DNA of 64,000 nucleotides, from assembly GCF_009834125.1 (NCBI RefSeq), contig NZ_CP047146.1, positions 2,287,501 through 2,351,500 on the forward strand, written 5' to 3'. A program made the translations under genes and the position numbers. Under the pieces are notes generated by a model. The model saw only the letters and a program-made list of their open reading frames with translations. It did not search any database and was not told where the DNA came from. This stretch comes from Streptomyces sp. GS7. GTDB lineage: Bacteria; Actinomycetota; Actinomycetes; Streptomycetales; Streptomycetaceae. This document shows positions 6,607 through 16,254 of this stretch, in pieces. The first letter of the stretch is position 1, and every line of letters begins with the position of its first letter.

Positions 6607-7725
6607 ATGGACCTCGCATTCATTCCCAGCCCGTCGACCGGTGTCGTCCATCTCGGCCCGATCCCGCTGCGCGGCTACGCGTTCTGCATCATCATCGGCG
6701 TGTTCGTCGGCGTCTGGCTCGGCAACAAGCGCTGGGTGCAGCGCGGTGGCCGCTCCGGCACCGTCGCCGACATCGCCGTATGGGCGGTGCCCTTCGGACT
6801 GGTGGGCGGCCGTCTCTACCACGTCATCACGACCTACGAGCCGTACTTCGGCAAGAACGGCCACCCCCTCGACGCCTTCAAGGTGTGGCAGGGCGGCCTC
6901 GGCATCTGGGGCGCCGTCGCCCTCGGCGCGGTCGGCGCCTGGATCGGCTGCCGCCGCCGCGGCATCCCGCTGCCCGCCTACGCCGACGCGCTGGCGCCGG
7001 GCCTCGCCCTGGGCCAGGCGATCGGCCGCTGGGGCAACTGGTTCAACCAGGAGCTGTACGGCAAGCCGACCGACGTCCCGTGGGCGCTGAAGATCAGCTC
7101 CGACCCGGCCATCGGGCGCATCGGCGGCACCTACCACCCGACGTTCCTCTACGAGTGCCTGTGGTGCATCGGCGTCGCGGCGCTGGTGATCTGGGCGGAC
7201 AAGCGCTTCCGGCTCGGCCACGGCCGCGCCTTCGCGCTCTACGTCGCCGCCTACTGCGTGGGCCGCGCCTGGATCGAGTACCTGCGCGTCGACGAGGCGC
7301 ACCACATCCTGGGCCTGCGGCTGAACGACTGGACCTCGGGGATCGTCTTCCTGCTCGCCGTGGCGTACATGGTGATCTCGGCGAAGAAGGCCCCGGGCCG
7401 CGAAGAGGTCGTCGAGCCGGGCGCGCAGCTCGCGGAGGGCGAAGAAGGCACGGGCGGTGCGGCAGGCGCGGCACGCGAGGAGGCCGCCGCGGGCGAGGGG
7501 TCCGCGGCCACCGGTCCGGCGGAGCGCGCCGAGGACGCCAAGGATGCCAAGGGCGCCGACGTCGATGCCCAGGACGCCAAGGGCGCCGACGACGCCGGGC
7601 CCGGGACGGGTGCTGCGGGGGCGAAGGACGGTGCCGCGGACGGTACGGCCGGGGGCGGCAAGGAAGCGGCGGAGGACTCCGGCAAGCATGCCGGGAGCGG
7701 CAGCAGCGGTACCGGGAAGCCCTGA
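6607..7725 (+). CDS. lgt: prolipoprotein diacylglyceryl transferase
   Basis: 372 residues. Transfers diacylglycerol to the lipobox cysteine of prolipoproteins, the first step of lipoprotein maturation, in the cytoplasmic membrane. Multiple membrane helices are followed by the Lgt signature in GRWGNWFNQELYG and HPTFLYE. ATG 6607 lies 10 nt after a TAGCGT -10-like element, so the message may be leaderless. The enzyme core ends near residue 262. About 110 further residues form an Ala/Gly/Glu/Asp/Lys-rich low-complexity tail with DAKGAD repeats. Such tails occur in actinobacterial Lgt and are probably cytoplasmic and disordered. Confidence 0.97.
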   Translation: MDLAFIPSPSTGVVHLGPIPLRGYAFCIIIGVFVGVWLGNKRWVQRGGRSGTVADIAVWAVPFGLVGGRLYHVITTYEPYFGKNGHPLDAFKVWQGGLGIWGAVALGAVGAWIGCRRRGIPLPAYADALAPGLALGQAIGRWGNWFNQELYGKPTDVPWALKISSDPAIGRIGGTYHPTFLYECLWCIGVAALVIWADKRFRLGHGRAFALYVAAYCVGRAWIEYLRVDEAHHILGLRLNDWTSGIVFLLAVAYMVISAKKAPGREEVVEPGAQLAEGEEGTGGAAGAAREEAAAGEGSAATGPAERAEDAKDAKGADVDAQDAKGADDAGPGTGAAGAKDGAADGTAGGGKEAAEDSGKHAGSGSSGTGKP

Positions 7726-7835: not shown

Positions 7836-8801
7836 TCACACCGGGTCGGCCCGGCGCTTCGCCGTTCGCCCGGCCAGTGCCAGCACCCGCCGCGCGCCCG
7901 CCACCACGGCCGGGTCCACGAACCGGCCGTCGGTGAGCGCCAGCGCCCCGGGCCGTGCCGCGGCGGCCCGCACGATCTCCGCCGCCGCCTCGGTCTCCTC
8001 CGCCGTGGGACGGTAGGCCGCCTCGATGACGGGCAGCTGGCGGGGGTGGATCGCGGCCCGGCCCAGGAACCCCAGCGCCCGGCCCCGTGCGCAGGAGCGC
8101 GCCAGCCCGTCGAGATCGCGGACGTCCGGATGCACCGACTGCGGTGGTGGCGCCAGACCCGCCGCGCGGGCCGCGACCACCACCCGGCCGCGCGGCCAGG
8201 CCAGCCCGGCCTCGTCCCGCAGCCCCAGTTCGGCGCGGAGATCGGCCTCGCCGAGCGCGATCCCGCGCACCGCCGGATGCGCGGTGGCGATGGTGTAGGC
8301 GTGCTCCACACCGAGCGCGGATTCGAGCAGGGCGTACAGCGCGGGGATGCGCGCCGGTGCGGTGGCCGGCGGGGCGGCGGTGGCGGTGGTGCCGGGCGGG
8401 GCGGCCCGCCCGGACGCCGCGGCGGCAGGCTCCGCGGACCGCACCGGATCCGTCGCCCAGGCCGCCGCCCGCAGCACGTCCGCCGGACCGTGCACCTTGG
8501 GCAGCCGCAGCCCGGCCAGCCCCGGCAGCGCGGCCAGGATGCGGATCTCGGCCGCGGCGCGCGGGCCGTCCAGCGCGTTGACCCGGACGTGCACCGGGGC
8601 CGGCCCGGGCGCGGGGTCGCTCAGCAGCTCGGCCGTGGCGCCCAGCGCGTAGTCCTTGCGGTCCGGAGCGACCGCGTCCTCCAGGTCGACGACGACCGCG
8701 CCGGCTCCGCAGCCGAGCGCCCGGGCGACCAGGTCCGGGCGGTCACCGGGCGCGTACAGCCAGGTCAGGGGAGGGACGCCGGGGTCCGGCCGCGGCCTCA
8801 C
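7836..8801 (-). CDS. CitE/HpcH-type CoA-ester lyase
   Basis: 321 residues of the HpcH/HpaI aldolase and citrate-lyase-beta family. Members cleave beta-hydroxyacyl-CoA esters such as malyl-, citramalyl- or citryl-CoA in a Mg-dependent TIM barrel. Visible motifs: VVVDLEDAVAPDRKDYA near residue 30, RVNALD, LRLPKVH, YALLESALGVEHA (metal-binding Glu) and GIALGEADLRAELG. An Ala/Pro/Thr-rich insert lies near residues 130-155. GTG at 8801 overlaps the upstream CaiB stop by 4 nt (GTGA). It is the last gene of a six-gene minus-strand operon, so it presumably works on a CoA ester made by the neighbouring transferase. The substrate is unknown. Confidence 0.92.
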   Translation of the reverse strand: MRPRPDPGVPPLTWLYAPGDRPDLVARALGCGAGAVVVDLEDAVAPDRKDYALGATAELLSDPAPGPAPVHVRVNALDGPRAAAEIRILAALPGLAGLRLPKVHGPADVLRAAAWATDPVRSAEPAAAASGRAAPPGTTATAAPPATAPARIPALYALLESALGVEHAYTIATAHPAVRGIALGEADLRAELGLRDEAGLAWPRGRVVVAARAAGLAPPPQSVHPDVRDLDGLARSCARGRALGFLGRAAIHPRQLPVIEAAYRPTAEETEAAAEIVRAAAARPGALALTDGRFVDPAVVAGARRVLALAGRTAKRRADPV

Positions 8802-10048
8802 AGCGCGCCGGCCGCACGCAGCTCGGCGATCTCCGGGGCGGTCATGCCGAGGCCGGTCAGCACCTCGTCGGTGTCCGCGCCGTGCGGGCGGCCCGCCCAG
8901 CGGATGGCGCCCGGCGTCTCGGAGAGCCGGAAGAGGACGTTCTGCATCCGCACCGAGCCCAGTTCGTCGTCCGGGATCTCGGTGAGCGTGCCGAGCGCCC
9001 GGTACTGCGGGTCCGCCAGCACATCGCGGATGTCGTAGACGGGCGCGACGGCCGCCTCCGCCTCCTCGAAGGCGGCCAGCACCTCGGCCCGGTCGTGCCG
9101 GGCGATCCAGCCGCCGACCGCGGCGTCCAGCTCGTCGGCGTGCCGGGCCCGCCCGGCGCCGGTCGCGAACCAGGGCTCGGCGGTGAGTTCGGGCCGGCCG
9201 ACCAGCCGCAGCACCCGCTCGGCGACGGACTGGGCGGAGGTGGAGACCGCGACCCAGGAGCCGTCGGCGGTGCGGTAGGTGTTGCGCGGCGCGTTGTTGG
9301 CGGAGCGGTTGCCGGTGCGCGGCTGGACGTGGCCTAGCTGGTCGTACCAGAGGGGCTGCGGGCCGAGGACGGTCAGCATCGGCTCGATGATCGCCAGGTC
9401 GACGACCTGGCCGCGGCCGGTGGCGTCCCGCCCGCGCAGCGCGGCCATCACGGCGTACGACGTGGTCAGCGCGGCGATCGCGTCGGCCAGGCCGAACGGC
9501 GGCAGGGTCGGCGGGCCGTCCGGTTCGCCGGTGAGCGCGGCGAATCCGCTCATCGCCTCGGCGAGCGTGCCGAATCCGGGGCGGTGGGCGTACGGCCCGA
9601 ACTGGCCGAAGCCGGTGACCCGGGCGAGCACCAGCCGCGGGTTGGCGGCGGACAGCTCCGCCCATCCCAGGCCCCACTTCTCCAGCGTGCCGGGGCGGAA
9701 GTTCTCGATGACGACATCCGCGCCGGCGGCGAGCCGGAGCAGCACGTCGCGCCCGCCGGGCCTCGACAGGTCGAGCGTCATGGCGCGCTTGTTGCGGCCG
9801 AGCAGCTTCCACCACAGTCCGACGCCGTCCTTGGCGGGGCCGTGGCCGCGCGACGGGTCGGGCCGGCGCGGATGCTCGATCTTGATCACCTCGGCGCCGA
9901 AGTCCCCGAGCAGGGTGGCGGCGAGCGGACCGGCGAACAGGGTGGCCAGGTCGAGCACCCGCAGCCCGGCCAGGGGGCCGGCGGTCGGCACGGCGGCGGT
10001 GGCCGGGGCGGGCCCGGACGCGCCGCCGGCGAGGAACGGGTCGGTCAT
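8798..10048 (-). CDS. CaiB/BaiF (family III) CoA-transferase
   Basis: 416 residues. Family III CoA-transferases move CoA between carboxylic acids through an aspartyl-CoA intermediate. Family marks: GLRVLDLATLFAGP, LLGDFGAEVIKIEHP, RNKRAMTLDLSRPGG, DVVIENFRPGTLEKWGLG, and PPFGLADAIAAL with the likely catalytic Asp. Both ends overlap neighbours by 4 nt (ATGA and GTGA). With the CoA-ester lyase downstream it forms an activate-then-cleave pair. The four ARH-fold genes upstream could supply or process the acid. The acid substrate cannot be read from sequence. Confidence 0.93.
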   Translation of the reverse strand: MTDPFLAGGASGPAPATAAVPTAGPLAGLRVLDLATLFAGPLAATLLGDFGAEVIKIEHPRRPDPSRGHGPAKDGVGLWWKLLGRNKRAMTLDLSRPGGRDVLLRLAAGADVVIENFRPGTLEKWGLGWAELSAANPRLVLARVTGFGQFGPYAHRPGFGTLAEAMSGFAALTGEPDGPPTLPPFGLADAIAALTTSYAVMAALRGRDATGRGQVVDLAIIEPMLTVLGPQPLWYDQLGHVQPRTGNRSANNAPRNTYRTADGSWVAVSTSAQSVAERVLRLVGRPELTAEPWFATGAGRARHADELDAAVGGWIARHDRAEVLAAFEEAEAAVAPVYDIRDVLADPQYRALGTLTEIPDDELGSVRMQNVLFRLSETPGAIRWAGRPHGADTDEVLTGLGMTAPEIAELRAAGAL

Positions 10049-11589
10049 GGTGCGGGGGCCTTCGGTCGGTGGGCGGGACGGGGGGAGTGCGGGTGCGCGG
10101 GGCCGCGGGAGTGCCGCGGGGCGCGGTGGCGTACTGCGAGTGCGGCGGTGCGGCGCGCGAGGGTGTCGAAGCCGACGCCGTCCAGCCCGCCGACGGTGGT
10201 GGTGAGCCGGTTGCGCAGCGGCGCGGTCCAGCGGGCGGGCAGCGTGGCGGGGGAGCCGGCGAGCAGTCCGGCGAGCGAACCGGCGGTGGCGCCGTTCGAG
10301 TCGGTGTCCCAACCGCCGGACACCGCACGGCAGATGGAGCCGGTGAAGTCCCCGTCGGCATGGGTGAGCGCGGCGGCCAGCAGTGCCGCGTTCGGCACCG
10401 CGTGCACCCAGTGGTGGTGCCCGTAGGCGTCGTGCAGCCGGTCCACCACGGCCGCGAACCCGGCGGCGGTGCCGGTCGGTTCGTCGTGCGCCGCCGCGAT
10501 GCCGTGGCGCACCGCCCCGGCGAGCCGGGACCGCGGGGGGATCACCGCGAGTCCGGCCCGCAGCGCACCGTGCACGTCGTCGCCGCCGCCCGCCGCGGCC
10601 AGCGCGGCGGCCACGAACATCGCGTCGTACACCCCGTTCGCGGTGTGGCTGAGCGTGGCGTCCCGCCAGACCTGGGCGGCGGCGCCCGCCGGGTCGCCCG
10701 GCCGCGTCCAGCCGTGCACGTCCGCCCGGATGCGGGCGCCGATCCACTCCCGGAACGGGTTGCGGTGGCGGGCGGTCGCGGGTGGCTCGACGCCGTCCAG
10801 CAGGTTGCGGTACGCGACGCGCTCCGCGGTGAAGGTACGGCCCGCGGGCAGTTCGTCCAGCCACAGCCGCGCGAGGTCGGCGGTGCGGAATCCGGGGCCG
10901 TGGCGTTCGAGGAGGAGCAGGCCGAGCAGCGGGTGGTCGAGGTCGTCGTCCTCGGGCATGCCGTCGAGGGTCTCGGCGAGCGAGGTGGCCCGGCTGCGGC
11001 GGTTCCACGGGTACCGGGCGGCCACCGCCGGATCCAGCCCCTTGCCGGTGAACCACGAGTCCAGCGGCCAGTTCCCGGTCGACCGGGCGATCTCCCGGAT
11101 GCCGGTGAGCGGCAGCTTCTCGACGGGCTTGCCGAGCAGGCAGCCCGCGGCCCGGCCGAGCCAGGCGGCTTCCAGACGGTCCGTCAGTTCCGGAAGCTCG
11201 GTAAGTTCTGGAGGGTCCTGAGGGTCCGGAGGGTCCTGAGTCAACTCGTCTTCAAGGAAGGGAAGTTGGGGGCAGAGCGCCGCGATCGCGTCCCGGTCGG
11301 TCGGTTCGTCGGCGGCCGACGGGCAGGGCAGCAGCGCGAGTTCGTCGAGCAGCCGGCCGGCGAGGGCGCGCAGCGCGGGGTCCGCCGGGCCGGGGGAGGC
11401 GCCCGCCCGCGCGGGGGCCGGTCCGCCGCCCGCCGCCCGCCACCGGCGCGCGATCCCGGCCGCGTCCCGCCCGTCCTCGGCCGCCTGCCGCAGCTCGTGC
11501 CCGACCAGGTCCTCGGGCTGTACCCAGGTGACCCGGAGCCCCGGCCCGGACCCGGGCGGGCGGGCCGCGCCCGCGCCGCCGTCCTTCAC
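10045..11589 (-). CDS. ADP-ribosylglycohydrolase-family protein, long form
   Basis: 514 residues. The first about 160 contain WVQPEDLVGHELRQAAEDG and a Pro/Glu/Leu-rich linker. The ARH fold then starts at AAWLGRAAGCLLGKPVEKL. Metal-site motifs are EDDDLDH and GGWDTDSNGATAGSLAG, both with the expected acidic residues, so it is likely active on an N- or O-glycosidic bond. The known architecture with an N-terminal WVQPEDL region is of unknown substrate. GTG at 11589 overlaps the next gene's stop by 4 nt (GTGA), and its own stop overlaps the CaiB ATG. Confidence 0.88.
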   Translation of the reverse strand: MKDGGAGAARPPGSGPGLRVTWVQPEDLVGHELRQAAEDGRDAAGIARRWRAAGGGPAPARAGASPGPADPALRALAGRLLDELALLPCPSAADEPTDRDAIAALCPQLPFLEDELTQDPPDPQDPPELTELPELTDRLEAAWLGRAAGCLLGKPVEKLPLTGIREIARSTGNWPLDSWFTGKGLDPAVAARYPWNRRSRATSLAETLDGMPEDDDLDHPLLGLLLLERHGPGFRTADLARLWLDELPAGRTFTAERVAYRNLLDGVEPPATARHRNPFREWIGARIRADVHGWTRPGDPAGAAAQVWRDATLSHTANGVYDAMFVAAALAAAGGGDDVHGALRAGLAVIPPRSRLAGAVRHGIAAAHDEPTGTAAGFAAVVDRLHDAYGHHHWVHAVPNAALLAAALTHADGDFTGSICRAVSGGWDTDSNGATAGSLAGLLAGSPATLPARWTAPLRNRLTTTVGGLDGVGFDTLARRTAALAVRHRAPRHSRGPAHPHSPRPAHRPKAPAP

Positions 11590-12878
11590 CGCCCGCTCAC
11601 CTCCGCCCGCGTCGCGCGGGCCGAGATCGCGCCGAACGCCTGCTCGTGCCGGAGGTTGCGGGCCTGGTCGCGGGCGAAGACCTCGCGGGCGACGGCGGCC
11701 AGCGCGGTCGCCGGCGCGTGCAGATCGAGCCGGCTGGCGCGGGCGACCTCGCCGCTCCACTCGTCCGGTACCGCGGACGCGCCGGCCAGCGCGCCGGCCA
11801 GCGCCCCGCTCATCGTGGCGATCGAGTCGCAGTCGCGGCCGTAGTTGACCGAGCCGAGGACGGTGGCGCGGAAGTCGCCGTCGGCGACCAGCAACATGCC
11901 CAGCGCGATGGGGAGTTCCTCGACGGCGTGCAGCCGGGAGGGGCGGCGGGCACCCAGCGAGGGGTTGCGGTAGTCCGGGCCGACCGTGTCGAACGGCGCG
12001 ACCGCCGCCCGCAGCGGCACCAGCGCCGACTCGTAGTCGGTGTGCGGCGCGGCGACGTCGCAGACCGCCTCGATCGCCGCGCGGGTACCGTCCTTCGCCA
12101 GCCGCAGCGCATGCCCGACGACCGAGGCGGGAGTGGCGTCCGGCAGGAACGCGGCGGCCACCGAGGCGGCGAAGACGCCCGCCGCCTCCCGCCCGTAGGA
12201 GGACTGGTGGGCACCGGAGAGGTCGATCGCCTCGGCGTAGGCCCGGTCGGGGTTGCCGGCGTTGACGATCCCGACCGGCGCCATGTACATCGCCGCACCG
12301 CAGTTGACGATGTTGCCGACGCCGGCCTCCCGCGGATCGGCGTGCCCGTAGTGCAGCCGCGCCACGATCCACTTCTCGGCGAGGAAGATCCGCTGCAACG
12401 GCAGCGCCTCGGCTTCCAGTTCGGGGATCCAGCGGGGGACGCTGATCAGGTCCGGGACGAGGTGGTCGGCGACGTCGTAGGCGTCGAGGTGGTCGCGCAC
12501 CGTCTCGTAGACGCGGACCAGCGCATGGGTCATCAGGGTGTCGTCGGTGACGTGGCCGTCGCCCTTGTGGTACGGCGCGATCGGCCGGGCGGTGCGCCAG
12601 TCCTCGTGGAACGGCCCGACGATGCCCTCGACCCGGCCGCCGTGCCGGGCCACGATCTGCTCCGGCGTCCAGCCCTCCACCGGTCCGCCCAGCGCGTCGC
12701 CGACCGCGGCCCCGACCAGGGCGCCGGTCGCCCGGTCCTCCAGGGGCGCGGCCTCGGGCCGGTCGTCCGCGGCCCGCGGCCCCGGGGGCTCCGGGGGGCC
12801 CGGCGCGGCGGCCGGGGCCGCGGGCTCCCGGGCGGGTGCCGGGGCCGTGGCGGGCGTGGTCTCCGTCGTATCCGTCAT
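11586..12878 (-). CDS. ADP-ribosylglycohydrolase-family protein
   Basis: 430 residues. After a Pro/Ala-rich N-terminus of about 45 residues the ARH core begins at AVGDALGGPVEGWTP. It contains HVTDDTLMTHALV (first metal ligands, TDDT) and NYGRDCDSIATMSGALAGAL (second site, D-x-D-S). All canonical acidic ligands are present. The family binds two Mg ions and hydrolyses ADP-ribosyl or related ribosyl linkages, although many bacterial members act on unknown small molecules. ATG 12878 and the stop each overlap the neighbours by 4 nt. Confidence 0.9.
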   Translation of the reverse strand: MTDTTETTPATAPAPAREPAAPAAAPGPPEPPGPRAADDRPEAAPLEDRATGALVGAAVGDALGGPVEGWTPEQIVARHGGRVEGIVGPFHEDWRTARPIAPYHKGDGHVTDDTLMTHALVRVYETVRDHLDAYDVADHLVPDLISVPRWIPELEAEALPLQRIFLAEKWIVARLHYGHADPREAGVGNIVNCGAAMYMAPVGIVNAGNPDRAYAEAIDLSGAHQSSYGREAAGVFAASVAAAFLPDATPASVVGHALRLAKDGTRAAIEAVCDVAAPHTDYESALVPLRAAVAPFDTVGPDYRNPSLGARRPSRLHAVEELPIALGMLLVADGDFRATVLGSVNYGRDCDSIATMSGALAGALAGASAVPDEWSGEVARASRLDLHAPATALAAVAREVFARDQARNLRHEQAFGAISARATRAEVSGR

Positions 12879-14140
12879 GTGCGGGTGAGTCCTTCCACGG
12901 TGGGGGTGGGCGGTGCGGCCGGGTGGGGGTCCGGGACGGGTGCCGGTACCGGTTCCGGTGCGGCATGTGCGGCATGTGCGGCATGTGCGGCGAGCCGGCC
13001 GGCCAGCGCCACCAGGTCCGTCCCGGCCAGCCGCGGCAGCGCGCAGCCGGCGAGCACCCGGCAGGAGTCGCGCCAGGCGCGGGGGAGGGCGCCGGCGCCG
13101 CCGAGCGCCCCGGTCAGTGCCCCGGTCAGCGCGGGCGCGGAGTCGGCGACCCGGGAGAGGCAGGCGGCGGCCGGTACCGCCTCGGTGATCCGCCCGTCCG
13201 CCGCCAGGACGAGCGCCAGCGCCACGGGGACGGTGTCGGCGGCGGCGACGCCGTAGCTGTATACGTGGTCGACGATCTCGTGCTCCAGCGCGGGCACCAG
13301 CGCGAACGCCGCACCGGGGCGGCCGGGCCGCCCGTCGGCGAGCCGCGCGAGCCGGACCGCGTGCCGGGCGGCCCGGCCGATCTCGGTCTCCTCCGGCAGC
13401 TGGCCGAGCGCCGCGGCGACGCAGCCGGCCGCCGGTACCCCGCCCAGCGCGGCGGCGGCCGCGGCGGCCAGCGCCCGCGCGCCGTGCACCCCGTCGCCGT
13501 CCTGGGTGTGCCGCGCGTCGTACTCGGCCAGCGCGGCCGCGGCGGCCGGCGCGCCGGGGTGGACGGCGGCCAGCACGGCGGCCCGGACGCAGGCCGCGTC
13601 GTCGAAGAAGTGCGGGTTGTCGTGCCCGGCCGCGGGCGGTCGCAGGCCGGCGGCGAGGTTGGCCAGCCCGGCGCGTACCGAGATCCGGGCGCGCAGCGGG
13701 GGCGTCCCGCCGGCCGCCTCCGCCGGCCCCGCCGCCGTCTCTTCCGCCAGCGTGTGCCAGGCGCGGTCGAGGGCGGCCCGGACCCGGCGGGCCCACCCGG
13801 GGCCGCCGCCCGCGGCGAGTACCGACTCCGCGGTGAACGCGGCCCATTCGGCGTCGTCGGACGGGCCCAGCAGCAGCGGCGCGGGCCGCTGGTTGAGCGC
13901 GAACGGCACCGGGAGCGCGGTGCTCGCGGTCCGCTCGGCGACGTCGTCCAGCTCGCGGGCCAGCCGCCGGGTCCAGGCCGGCAGCAGGGCCGCCCGGTGC
14001 CGCGCCGCGGGCCACCCGGCGGCGTCCCCGGCGGCCAGGCCGAGCAGCAGGCCCTCGACGCGCGAGCGGGTGGGCTCCGCGCCGCCGGTGTGGGACCCGG
14101 CACCCGGCCCCGGAACCCGGGCCGCGCCGACGCCCGTCAT
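12875..14140 (-). CDS. ADP-ribosylglycohydrolase-family protein with altered metal site
   Basis: 421 residues of clear ARH fold (LLLGLAAGDAAGWP near residue 30). The TDDT motif reads GPSDDAEWAAF. The second motif reads SRVADSAPALTGALTGAL where active relatives have GRDxDT, so at least one metal-binding Asp is lost. It may be a pseudoenzyme or partner of a sister protein. The C-terminus has an AAH tripeptide repeated from three 9-bp DNA repeats (12962-12988), then a Pro-rich tail. ATG 14140 and the stop overlap the neighbours by 4 nt. Confidence 0.87.
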   Translation of the reverse strand: MTGVGAARVPGPGAGSHTGGAEPTRSRVEGLLLGLAAGDAAGWPAARHRAALLPAWTRRLARELDDVAERTASTALPVPFALNQRPAPLLLGPSDDAEWAAFTAESVLAAGGGPGWARRVRAALDRAWHTLAEETAAGPAEAAGGTPPLRARISVRAGLANLAAGLRPPAAGHDNPHFFDDAACVRAAVLAAVHPGAPAAAAALAEYDARHTQDGDGVHGARALAAAAAAALGGVPAAGCVAAALGQLPEETEIGRAARHAVRLARLADGRPGRPGAAFALVPALEHEIVDHVYSYGVAAADTVPVALALVLAADGRITEAVPAAACLSRVADSAPALTGALTGALGGAGALPRAWRDSCRVLAGCALPRLAGTDLVALAGRLAAHAAHAAHAAPEPVPAPVPDPHPAAPPTPTVEGLTRT

Positions 14141-15153
14141 CCGGCGCTCACCGCGGCCCCGGTGAGCGCCGTGGCCCCGCCCGCCGCCACCAGCAACTCC
14201 GCGACGTCCAGCACGTGGTACCCCGCCACCGACGGCAGGCAGCTGCCGCGCGCCGGGCCGATCGCGGCGGCCCAGGCGGCGGGGATCGCCGCGGCCCCGC
14301 GCAGCGCCCCCGCCAGCGCGCCGGCGACCGCCCCGGTGGTGTCCGCGTCGCGCCCCATGTTGACCGCGGTCAGCACCGATCCGGCGGGATCGCCGCCGGC
14401 CGCGGCGAACGCGCCGAACGCCAGCCCGACGGCCTCGGGCGCCAGATCCGCCCAGGGGTACCCGTCGACCACCACGGCGTTCCGCACCGCGTCCTCGGCG
14501 GCGCGCCCCGCGGCCCCGGCCCGGCGGGCCGCCGCCACCGCCCGCCGCAGCGACCGCCCCGTCCAGGAGTCCTCCGGTACGGCGGCGAGCGCGGCGGCGA
14601 GCACGGAGTCGGGGGAGTCGGCCGTCATCGCGGCGGCGACCCCGGCGGCCACCGCCCGCCCGCCGTGGATGCCCTCGCCGGTGTGGCTGACCGCGCCGTC
14701 CACGGCGGCCAGCCGGGCGGCCTCGGAGGGCCGGCCGGCCGCGAACACCCCGAACGGCGCGGCCCGCATCGCCAGTCCGTCGCTCCAGGCGTGCCGGTGC
14801 TGGGCGGAGCGCGGTGCGGCCAGGCCGCGGCGCAGGTTCTCCAGGGTGCCGCGTTCGCTGAAGCCGGCGCCGCGGAACGGCCCTTCGTCGCGGTCGGCCA
14901 GGCACCGGCGCCAGGCGGCCTCGACCTGCGCGGTGGTCAGCGCCGCACCGTGCGCGGCGAGCAGCAGGCCGGAGAAGACGGCGTACTCGGTGTCGTCGGT
15001 GCCGGCCGGGTCGTCCGTGACGAACCCCTCGATCCGCCCCCAGCGGCACTGGATCTGATGGGGTGTCAGGTTCTCGGCGGGGGCGCCCAGCGCGTCCCCG
15101 ACGGCCAGTCCCAGCATCGCTCCACGCGCCCGGTCCGGTACGTTTCCGCCCAC
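14137..15153 (-). CDS. ADP-ribosylglycohydrolase-family protein, first gene of the operon
   Basis: 338 residues, close to a minimal ARH domain. Motifs: AMLGLAVGDALGAPAENLTP, GTDDTEYAVFSG (TDDT ligands) and NMGRDADTTGAVAGALAGAL (D-x-D-T ligands). All metal ligands are present, so it is probably catalytic. Start is GTG at 15153 behind a GAAGGGCGGGC purine-rich stretch. As the 5'-most gene of the overlapping set it should carry the operon promoter in the 360-nt gap to the divergent VIT1-type gene. Confidence 0.9.
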   Translation of the reverse strand: MGGNVPDRARGAMLGLAVGDALGAPAENLTPHQIQCRWGRIEGFVTDDPAGTDDTEYAVFSGLLLAAHGAALTTAQVEAAWRRCLADRDEGPFRGAGFSERGTLENLRRGLAAPRSAQHRHAWSDGLAMRAAPFGVFAAGRPSEAARLAAVDGAVSHTGEGIHGGRAVAAGVAAAMTADSPDSVLAAALAAVPEDSWTGRSLRRAVAAARRAGAAGRAAEDAVRNAVVVDGYPWADLAPEAVGLAFGAFAAAGGDPAGSVLTAVNMGRDADTTGAVAGALAGALRGAAAIPAAWAAAIGPARGSCLPSVAGYHVLDVAELLVAAGGATALTGAAVSAG

Positions 15154-15513: not shown

Positions 15514-16254
15514 ATGTCCGTCATGGAGATCATGGATGCCGCCGCGCCGACGCATGTGGCGCACCGCGACAATCACACCCACCGCGATGTGAACGGCGGC
15601 TGGCTGCGCCCCGCCGTCTTCGGTGCGATGGACGGCCTGGTGTCCAATCTCGCGCTGATGACCGGTGTCGCCGGCGGCGCGGTCTCGCAGCAGACGATCA
15701 TCATCACCGGCCTCGCGGGGCTGGCGGCCGGTGCGTTCTCGATGGCCGCGGGGGAGTACACCTCGGTCGCCTCCCAGCGCGAGCTGGTGATGGCCGAGCT
15801 GGACGTCGAGCGGACCCAGCTGAGCAAGCACCCGAAGGACGAGCAGGCGGAGCTGGCGGCGCTCTACGAGTCCCGCGGGGTGGAGCCGGAACTCGCCCGG
15901 CAGGTCGCCGAGCAGCTGTCCCGCGACCCCGAGCAGGCGCTGGAGATCCACGCCCGCGAGGAATTGGGCATCGACCCGTCGGACCTTCCTTCTCCGGCCG
16001 TCGCCGCCGTTTCCTCCTTCGGATCCTTTGCGCTCGGCGCTCTTCTTCCTCTCCTTCCCTATCTTTTGGGAGCCTCCTCCCTCTGGCTCGCGGTGCTGCT
16101 GGCGCTGGTCGGACTGTTCGGCTGCGGTGCCGTCGTGGCGCGGGTGACGGCCCGCTCGTGGTGGTTCAGCGGACTGCGCCAACTGGCTCTGGGCGGCGCC
16201 GCGGCGGGCGTGACCTACGGCCTGGGAGCACTGTTCGGCACGGTCGTGAGCTGA
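15514..16254 (+). CDS. VIT1/CCC1-type iron/manganese transporter
   Basis: 246 residues. Vacuolar-iron-transporter family; bacterial members are thought to export Fe or Mn. The first helices hold RPAVFGAMDGLVSNLALM and GLAAGAFSMAAGEYTSVASQ. Then comes the charged, helical cytosolic metal-binding domain (about residues 88-155), then three helices to the C-terminus. Length is typical. ATG 15514 follows AAGGGAGCAGG. A block of T-ending and otherwise rare codons sits at the start of the third helix (about 15980-16085). Confidence 0.92.
   Translation: MSVMEIMDAAAPTHVAHRDNHTHRDVNGGWLRPAVFGAMDGLVSNLALMTGVAGGAVSQQTIIITGLAGLAAGAFSMAAGEYTSVASQRELVMAELDVERTQLSKHPKDEQAELAALYESRGVEPELARQVAEQLSRDPEQALEIHAREELGIDPSDLPSPAVAAVSSFGSFALGALLPLLPYLLGASSLWLAVLLALVGLFGCGAVVARVTARSWWFSGLRQLALGGAAAGVTYGLGALFGTVVS

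What the first reader, a model, noticed from the sequence alone, without database searches (positions are those of the whole stretch)
7836..15153. Six-gene overlapping operon: four ARH-fold hydrolases with a CoA-transferase and a CoA-ester lyase
All five junctions are 4-nt ATGA or GTGA overlaps, so the six proteins are made as a coupled set. Four different ADP-ribosylglycohydrolase-family proteins in a row is far more than needed for protein de-ADP-ribosylation, and no ADP-ribosyltransferase is nearby. Family knowledge: ARH proteins cleave ribosyl or ADP-ribosyl bonds, CaiB enzymes load CoA on carboxylic acids, and CitE enzymes cleave beta-hydroxyacyl-CoA. Inference: a catabolic or salvage path in which glycosidases free an acid or its conjugate, which is then CoA-activated and split. 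A regulatory or conjugate-removal system is also possible. I know of no described pathway with this set.
Basis: partly seen in the sequence, partly recalled or inferred. Interest (0 to 1): 0.8.

Follow-up and report, generated by a model that had tools for sequence, protein, structure and literature searches.

The report
ARH enzymes repurposed for riboside catabolism
Six overlapping genes of a streptomycete, whose counterparts in many other actinobacteria sit beside genes for a sugar importer and a ribokinase, are predicted to take apart a still unidentified ribose-containing compound, so proteins named for removing ADP-ribose from other proteins would here be sugar-cutting digestive enzymes.

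Summary
In detail: six minus-strand genes (15153-7836), five 4-nt overlaps, four PF03747 (ARH) proteins, one CaiB and one CitE-like protein. The set is the reduced form of a widespread actinobacterial operon: LacI regulator, two permeases, sugar-binding lipoprotein, ARH-A, -B, -C, -D, ribokinase, sometimes a glycosidase-like protein X and an esterase, then CaiB and CitE. This genome lacks the importer and the operon's ribokinase. The four ARH proteins are four old clades; A and C keep the full metal site, D most of it, and B has lost two acids in every aligned row that covers them. CaiB-CitE is optional: absent beside the ARH genes in 20 of 80 loci; 16 of those genomes were checked and all hold a sister-type CaiB elsewhere, CitE beside it in 15. 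Best reading: catabolism of a ribose-containing glycoside or ester; ARH proteins cut it, ribose is phosphorylated, the acid part is loaded on CoA and split. Substrate unknown; no activity measured here. In S. coelicolor the ARH genes are listed as uncharacterised DraG homologues, and two of the presumed orthologues were inactive on a uracil-ADP-ribose probe. I found no paper describing the operon.

The parts
14137..15153 (-). gene A, ARH-fold hydrolase (338 aa, GTG start); metal-site residues D20, E27, T52-D53-D54, D269, D271, T272
   Evidence: PF03747, 183 bits; motif conservation in 38 aligned rows; aligned to DraG
12875..14140 (-). gene B, ARH-family protein with degenerate metal site (Glu position is A46, first Asp of DxDT is V331); likely non-catalytic or altered partner of A
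   Evidence: 118 bits; Glu absent in 26 of 26 rows that cover it, first Asp absent in 35 of 35; sister clade of A
11586..12878 (-). gene C, ARH-fold hydrolase (430 aa); D61, E68, T111-D112-D113, D349, D351, S352
   Evidence: 181 bits; best solved chain by sequence MJ1187
10045..11589 (-). gene D, ARH-fold hydrolase with unassigned N-terminal part of about 130 aa; C150, E157, E213-D214-D215, D428, D430, S431
   Evidence: 149 bits; alignment; predicted model has the ARH fold over residues 131-490
8798..10048 (-). gene E, family III CoA-transferase (CaiB/BaiF), Asp189 aligned with an Asp column of solved relatives
   Evidence: (PF02515, 423 bits)
7836..8801 (-). gene F, CitE-like CoA-ester lyase; E160, D187, R73 kept
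   Evidence: (PF03328, 104 bits)
15514..16254 (+). divergent neighbour, VIT1-family protein (not part of the operon; marks its upstream edge)
6607..7725 (+). convergent neighbour lgt, after trpA and a DsbA-like gene (not part of the operon; marks its downstream edge)

Best explanation
The six genes are the reduced form of a widespread actinobacterial operon that most likely breaks down a ribose-containing glycoside or ester: ARH-fold proteins would cut the ribosyl bonds, a ribokinase (present in most sampled relatives, absent from the operon here) would phosphorylate the ribose, and the CaiB and CitE proteins would load the freed acid onto CoA and split it. In relatives a LacI-type repressor and a CUT1-type ABC importer precede the ARH genes, and some also have a glycosidase-like protein X and an esterase with a signal-like N-terminus. 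Shown: gene content, order, conservation, metal-site residues, predicted fold of D, optional presence of E-F. Inferred: ribose as the sugar (from the ribokinase and from the ARH fold's chemistry), a hydroxy acid as the other part (from CaiB plus CitE, and from the GntR/DctM company of the sister-type free-standing pairs), import of the substrate, and B as a non-catalytic partner of A. In this genome the importer is missing, so the substrate either enters by another route or arises inside the cell.
Against: No substrate or activity is known. This genome lacks the dedicated binding protein (best 27% identity) and the operon's ribokinase (best 48%); all 21 trp-linked loci of the 30 family loci lack the importer, yet keep ARH genes, E and F, so import and ribose phosphorylation by operon products cannot be general. 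ARH enzymes of known activity act on ADP-ribose, and another S. coelicolor ARH, SCO5809, removes phosphate-linked ADP-ribose from RNA (PMC11833690, passages read). E is absent beside the ARH genes in 20 of 80 loci, and the free-standing E proteins of 8 genomes put in a tree form a clade of their own (100/99) apart from the ARH-linked ones, so they do not show that the same acid is used there. That SCO2028-SCO2031 are genes A-D is inferred from locus order and the trp neighbourhood; I did not fetch that genome.
Confidence: 0.6

Rival explanations
1. The ARH set reverses ADP-ribosylation of proteins or nucleic acids, as DraG and ARH1/3 do; CaiB and CitE are unrelated passengers.
For: PF03747 membership and kept metal sites in A and C; S. 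coelicolor ARH homologues are listed as candidate ADP-ribose hydrolases (PMC5087735, PMC9411070; passages read); SCO5809, another ARH, is active on RNA phosphate-linked ADP-ribose (PMC11833690).
Against: Sugar importer, LacI-type regulator and ribokinase in the same operon of most sampled relatives; SCO2028 and SCO2030 inactive on U-alpha-ADP-ribose (PMC13036486; one probe only); DraG and Tri1 equivalog models far below cut-off (best 62.1 of 337.05 and 48.8 of 490 bits). B and D show no stretch like the NGAAMR of DraG that A matches with DGLAMR and C with CGAAMY (by sequence only).
Confidence: 0.13
2. An internal salvage or repair path: the ARH proteins act on ribosides that arise in the cytosol (for example from NAD or nucleotide breakdown), and E-F disposes of an acid made there.
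For: All 21 trp-linked family loci and this genome keep ARH genes, E and F without the importer; E. coli yegTUV pairs an ARH with a kinase and a nucleoside symporter and has been tied to ADP-glucose and glycogen (PMC10819704, passages read).
Against: The importer is in 70 of 80 named loci, in four Streptomyces loci still at the trp site (L116, L131, L161, L162), and an esterase with a signal-like N-terminus in some is present in 16 of 80.
Confidence: 0.2
3. The sugar is not ribose: the ARH proteins cleave another furanoside or hexoside and the PfkB protein phosphorylates another sugar.
For: One of three ribokinase homologues tested falls just under the ribokinase cut-off (298.3 of 299.65); X resembles hexosidases in a low-confidence model; A, C and D are far from any solved ARH by sequence (B not tested).
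Against: Two of three pass the ribokinase equivalog cut-off and all 14 solved chains found at E 1e-30 are ribokinases.
Confidence: 0.15

Closest known systems
E. coli yegTUV (YegU ARH-like, YegV PfkB kinase, YegT nucleoside symporter), repressed by GgaR/YegW
   Same: ARH protein, sugar kinase and transporter in one operon under a dedicated repressor (passages of PMC10819704)
   Different: one ARH instead of four, MFS symporter instead of ABC importer, GntR-type regulator, no CoA-transferase or CoA-lyase; function also unsettled
DraG / ARH1 / ARH3 (ADP-ribosyl)hydrolases
   Same: Pfam family, fold (D model), metal-site residues in A and C
   Different: equivalog models not met, D and B have altered metal motifs, sugar-catabolic gene company in relatives
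S. coelicolor SCO2028-SCO2031, listed as uncharacterised DraG/ARH homologues
   Same: very probably the orthologues of A-D, by locus order next to trp genes (inferred)
   Different: the passages read list them singly and do not mention an operon with CaiB, CitE or ribokinase
Itaconate/citramalate-type CoA routes (RipC, CitE, family III CoA-transferases)
   Same: CoA transfer to an acid followed by a CitE-type cleavage (recalled pathway knowledge)
   Different: below the equivalog cut-offs (F 131.6 of 375 for RipC; E 247.9 of 750 for succinate-glutarate CoA-transferase); no hydratase in the operon
Actinobacterial CUT1 sugar operons (LacI regulator, binding protein, two permeases, glycosidase)
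   Same: gene order and families of the importer half in relatives
   Different: the place of the glycosidase is taken by ARH proteins

Membership tests
ARH family PF03747 | Pfam score above curated cut-off | tested here: met
   A-D 118-183 bits, cut-off 26.2
ARH family PF03747 | all-helical ARH fold | tested here: met
ARH family PF03747 | metal-site residues as in ARH3 (D34, E41, T76-D77-D78 named in PMC8319183; D314, D316, T317 partly recalled) | tested here: inconclusive
   A and C carry all (S for T317 in C); D has C for D34, E for T76, S for T317; B lacks the Glu in 26 of 26 covering rows and the first D of DxDT in 35 of 35
DraG (TIGR02662) and Tri1 (NF041672) | equivalog cut-off | tested here: not met
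   best 62.1 of 337.05 and 48.8 of 490 bits
(ADP-ribosyl)hydrolase by activity | cleaves ADP-ribosyl bonds | not testable with these tools
   literature only: presumed orthologues SCO2028 and SCO2030 inactive on U-alpha-ADP-ribose (PMC13036486)
family III CoA-transferase | PF02515 over full length and catalytic Asp | tested here: met
   423 bits, profile 1-366 of 366; D189 aligned to an Asp of 4ed9, 10uh and 9fn0; that this column is the catalytic Asp is recalled
named CoA-transferase types (formyl-CoA, succinyl-CoA:mesaconate, succinate-glutarate) | NCBIfam equivalog cut-off | tested here: not met
   best 247.9 of 750
CitE-like CoA lyase | PF03328 and acidic metal ligands | tested here: met
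   104 bits; E160, D187, R73 kept against 3qll and 8khl; their role is recalled
RipC / CitE equivalogs | NCBIfam cut-off | tested here: not met
   131.6 of 375 and 124 of 443.4
ribokinase (gene of relatives) | TIGR02152 cut-off 299.65 | tested here: met
   2 of 3 tested pass, third 298.3
sugar-catabolic operon with its own importer | dedicated importer in the operon | tested here: not met
   absent in this genome and in 21 of 21 trp-linked family loci; present in 9 of 30 family loci and 70 of 80 named loci

The most novel reading that the evidence does not exclude
The ARH fold, known for erasing ADP-ribose marks, has in actinobacteria founded a family of true glycosidases: a four-protein relay (two core cutters C and D, and a catalytic-plus-silent pair A-B) that takes apart an undescribed ribose-bearing natural compound whose acid part is consumed through CoA activation and CitE-type cleavage.
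Probability: 0.45. Interest if true: 0.82.

Novelty: new variant of a known kind. Interest (0 to 1): 0.64.

Why it matters
PF03747 proteins are commonly annotated as ADP-ribosylglycohydrolases and counted as ADP-ribosylation erasers. A widespread operon that places two to four of them between a sugar importer and a ribokinase suggests that the annotation can mislead, points to an unknown ribose-containing compound used by actinobacteria, and gives a direct way to find it through the binding protein. It could also help to explain why S. coelicolor has far more ARH proteins than characterised ADP-ribosyltransferases (PMC9411070, passage read).

Tried and rejected
Rejected: a set of recent tandem duplicates. 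The tree gives A, B, C and D as four clades, each spanning several families. Rejected: E and F as obligatory partners of the ARH genes; E is absent beside them in 20 of 80 loci. Weakened on checking: that those genomes simply keep the same E-F elsewhere. All 16 that I searched hold an E of 66-74% identity, but in a tree of 38 rows (8 of the 16 used) the free-standing E proteins form their own clade (100/99), and the ARH-linked ones form another group at 86/92 that also takes in L190 and L191, which are not ARH-linked. Rejected for now: reading X as a sulfatase-modifying enzyme; it matches PF03781 over 489-587 only, and the first 400 residues look like a sugar-hydrolase barrel in a model of low confidence (pLDDT 58.7), so X stays a guess. 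Led nowhere: paper searches for the operon (searches found no description; one found nothing on ARH-type ribosidases; 41 was too broad); the homologue search with X (the 120 rows listed of 1792 carry only PF03781). Foldseek and VIA-align gave no known fold for the first 130 residues of D; that part was barely tested. The single match of that part in G120 falls in an IclR regulator gene and looks like chance. Not done: residue-level test of the adenosine pocket of ARH3 in A, C and D, and a scan of the whole window for ADP-ribosyltransferases.

Counting notes: gene calls in scripts come from a home-made codon-usage caller with blastp to reference proteins, so absences of A, B, C or F in single loci may be calling errors (for example B in L023 and L025 is missed by the caller, but found by tblastn). 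X is counted 36 of 80 and 37, because the X-esterase fusion in L163 was labelled esterase in the first. The motif counts use the loci fetched before and the window (A 38, B 35, C 40, D 39 rows), not the 80. Loci L048-L057, L077-L083, L085 and L086 are paralogues, neighbours or misses and were left out of the orthologue counts.
Full report
What is there. The window lies at 2287501-2351500 of a 9.07 Mb single-contig genome. Its neighbours are trpA, a DsbA-like gene and lgt on one side and a VIT1-family gene and gltB on the other; the trpA side is shared by 21 of 30 family loci. A-D are PF03747 proteins, E is a family III CoA-transferase, F is CitE-like. The genome has seven PF03747 genes, four of them here.

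Conservation in the family. D was searched in 121 family genomes: 45 have some match, 30 (own included) have a strong orthologue (529 bits or more) and one more (G110) has a shortened one. In the 30 fetched loci of other genomes the order A-B-C-D-E-F is the same; all six are readable in 28, one locus is cut by its contig end (L046) and one has a deletion in C and D (L047). E at or above 700 bits is found in exactly these 31 genomes, while eight further genomes have a weaker E (matches of 441-635 bits) without D.

The missing pieces. In 22 of the 30 loci a ribokinase gene sits between D and E. Two of three homologues tested pass the curated ribokinase cut-off, the third misses it by 1.4 bits, and all 14 solved chains matched at E 1e-30 are ribokinases. 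In 9 of the 30, none of them near trpA, a LacI-type regulator, two ABC permeases and a sugar-binding lipoprotein stand upstream on the same strand. The window genome has neither: best match to the binding protein 27% identity, best match to the operon ribokinase 48%.

Across the class. A class-wide sample of 128 genomes gave 23 with a D match, among them full operons in other families. A scan of the genome collection with a D alignment gave 80 named loci from Jiangella, Micromonospora, Nonomuraea, Amycolatopsis, Nocardioides, Streptomyces and others. In these: LacI 68, permeases 70, binding protein 70, A 39, B 46, C 77, D 80 (by construction), ribokinase 66, X 36, esterase 16, E 60, F 57 of 80 (X 37 on recount). 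Micromonospora loci have C, D, ribokinase, X and mostly E and F, without A and B; Nonomuraea loci have B, C, D, ribokinase and mostly A, without E and F; four loci of Nocardiopsis kin have A-D after the importer and nothing more of the set. Four Streptomyces loci (L116, L131, L161, L162) keep the importer at the trp locus, so the window's form is best read as loss. Ribokinase-X and X-esterase fusions occur once each (L140, L163).

X and the esterase. X (about 650 aa) has a C-terminal PF03781 match and an N-terminal part that in a low-confidence model (pLDDT 58.7) resembles sugar-hydrolase barrels. The esterase is PF00756 in 5 of 5 tested; that it is secreted is my reading of its N-terminus in some loci, and the fused form in L163 has no such start.

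The acid module. Of the 20 named loci without E, 16 genomes (12 Nonomuraea, 4 Nocardiopsis kin) were searched; all hold an E of 66-74% identity elsewhere. There F adjoins E in 15 of 16 (the sixteenth is cut by its contig end), a GntR/FCD-type gene is adjacent in 16 of 16 (blastp 53-100% to one of them; Pfam-checked in two), and a DctM-family transporter follows in 5 (Pfam-checked in three). In a tree these free-standing E proteins (8 used) are a clade of their own, close to but apart from the ARH-linked ones. So E-F pairs of this type can stand alone as acid-using modules, but whether the Nonomuraea pair meets the same acid is open. In the eight family genomes with a weaker E, and in further copies, E often sits with MmgE/PrpD, PF04199 cyclase and amidohydrolase relatives (Pfam-checked in L194, and in part in L185; the rest by eye). 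This is company for small hydroxy- or dicarboxylic acids. E and F fall below all named equivalog cut-offs, so the acid is not identified.

Mechanism. Best reading: an external ribosyl conjugate, perhaps deacylated by the esterase, enters by the ABC importer; C and D, with A-B or X for further bonds, release ribose and an acid; ribokinase makes ribose 5-phosphate; E makes the CoA ester and F splits it. In Streptomyces the importer is mostly absent from the locus, so there the substrate comes by another door or from inside. Everything after gene content and residues is inference.

Literature. S. coelicolor SCO2028-SCO2031 are listed as uncharacterised DraG/ARH homologues (PMC9411070; SCO2028-2030 in PMC5087735; passages read). 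SCO2028 and SCO2030 were purified and showed no activity on U-alpha-ADP-ribose (PMC13036486, passages read). Another ARH, SCO5809, acts on phosphate-linked ADP-ribose of RNA (PMC11833690, passages read). E. coli yegTUV is the nearest analogue (PMC10819704, passages read). Searches for a description of the operon found none in this library; subscription papers and preprints are not covered.

Verdict. The catabolic idea is right in outline and now has strong context; the fixed six-gene coupling is not. It is a new variant of a known kind (sugar-conjugate catabolic operon) in which the ARH fold likely does the cutting.

Noticed in passing
L048 9444-11900 and 16930-17439; similar in L050, L051: A stand-alone D-like ARH (44-51% identical to D) in other Streptomycetaceae is followed in L048 by a NUDIX gene and a Sir2 gene, with a macrodomain gene 5 kb on (Pfam-checked in L048; L050 and L051 by eye): a more classical ADP-ribose neighbourhood.
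   Followed up: partly
L081 8960-10946 and L082 4829-6833: A two-gene A-B form next to LacI, binding-protein and permease genes; in L081 a DctM transporter and a fused NAD-binding/RraA-type aldolase protein lie within 6 kb (Pfam).
   Followed up: partly
L047 (G110) about 9594-10353: C and D are both shortened while ribokinase, E and F are still there: an operon that seems to be decaying.
   Followed up: no
L185, L186, L190-L195, L196-L200: CaiB homologues of E next to MmgE/PrpD, PF04199 cyclase and amidohydrolase genes, often with a CitE-like gene (Pfam-checked in L194 and in part in L185; the rest by eye): possibly a degradation pathway for cyclic imides or related acids.
   Followed up: partly
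L078 1593-11189: A distant D-like ARH (38%) with a LacI gene, an ABC importer and an HpcH/HpaI aldolase (PF03328) on the same stretch: the ARH plus importer plus aldolase theme may be wider.
   Followed up: partly
window 10045-11589, residues 1-130 of D: The N-terminal part with the conserved stretch LTWVQPEDLxGHELRQAAEDG has no assigned family or fold.
   Followed up: partly
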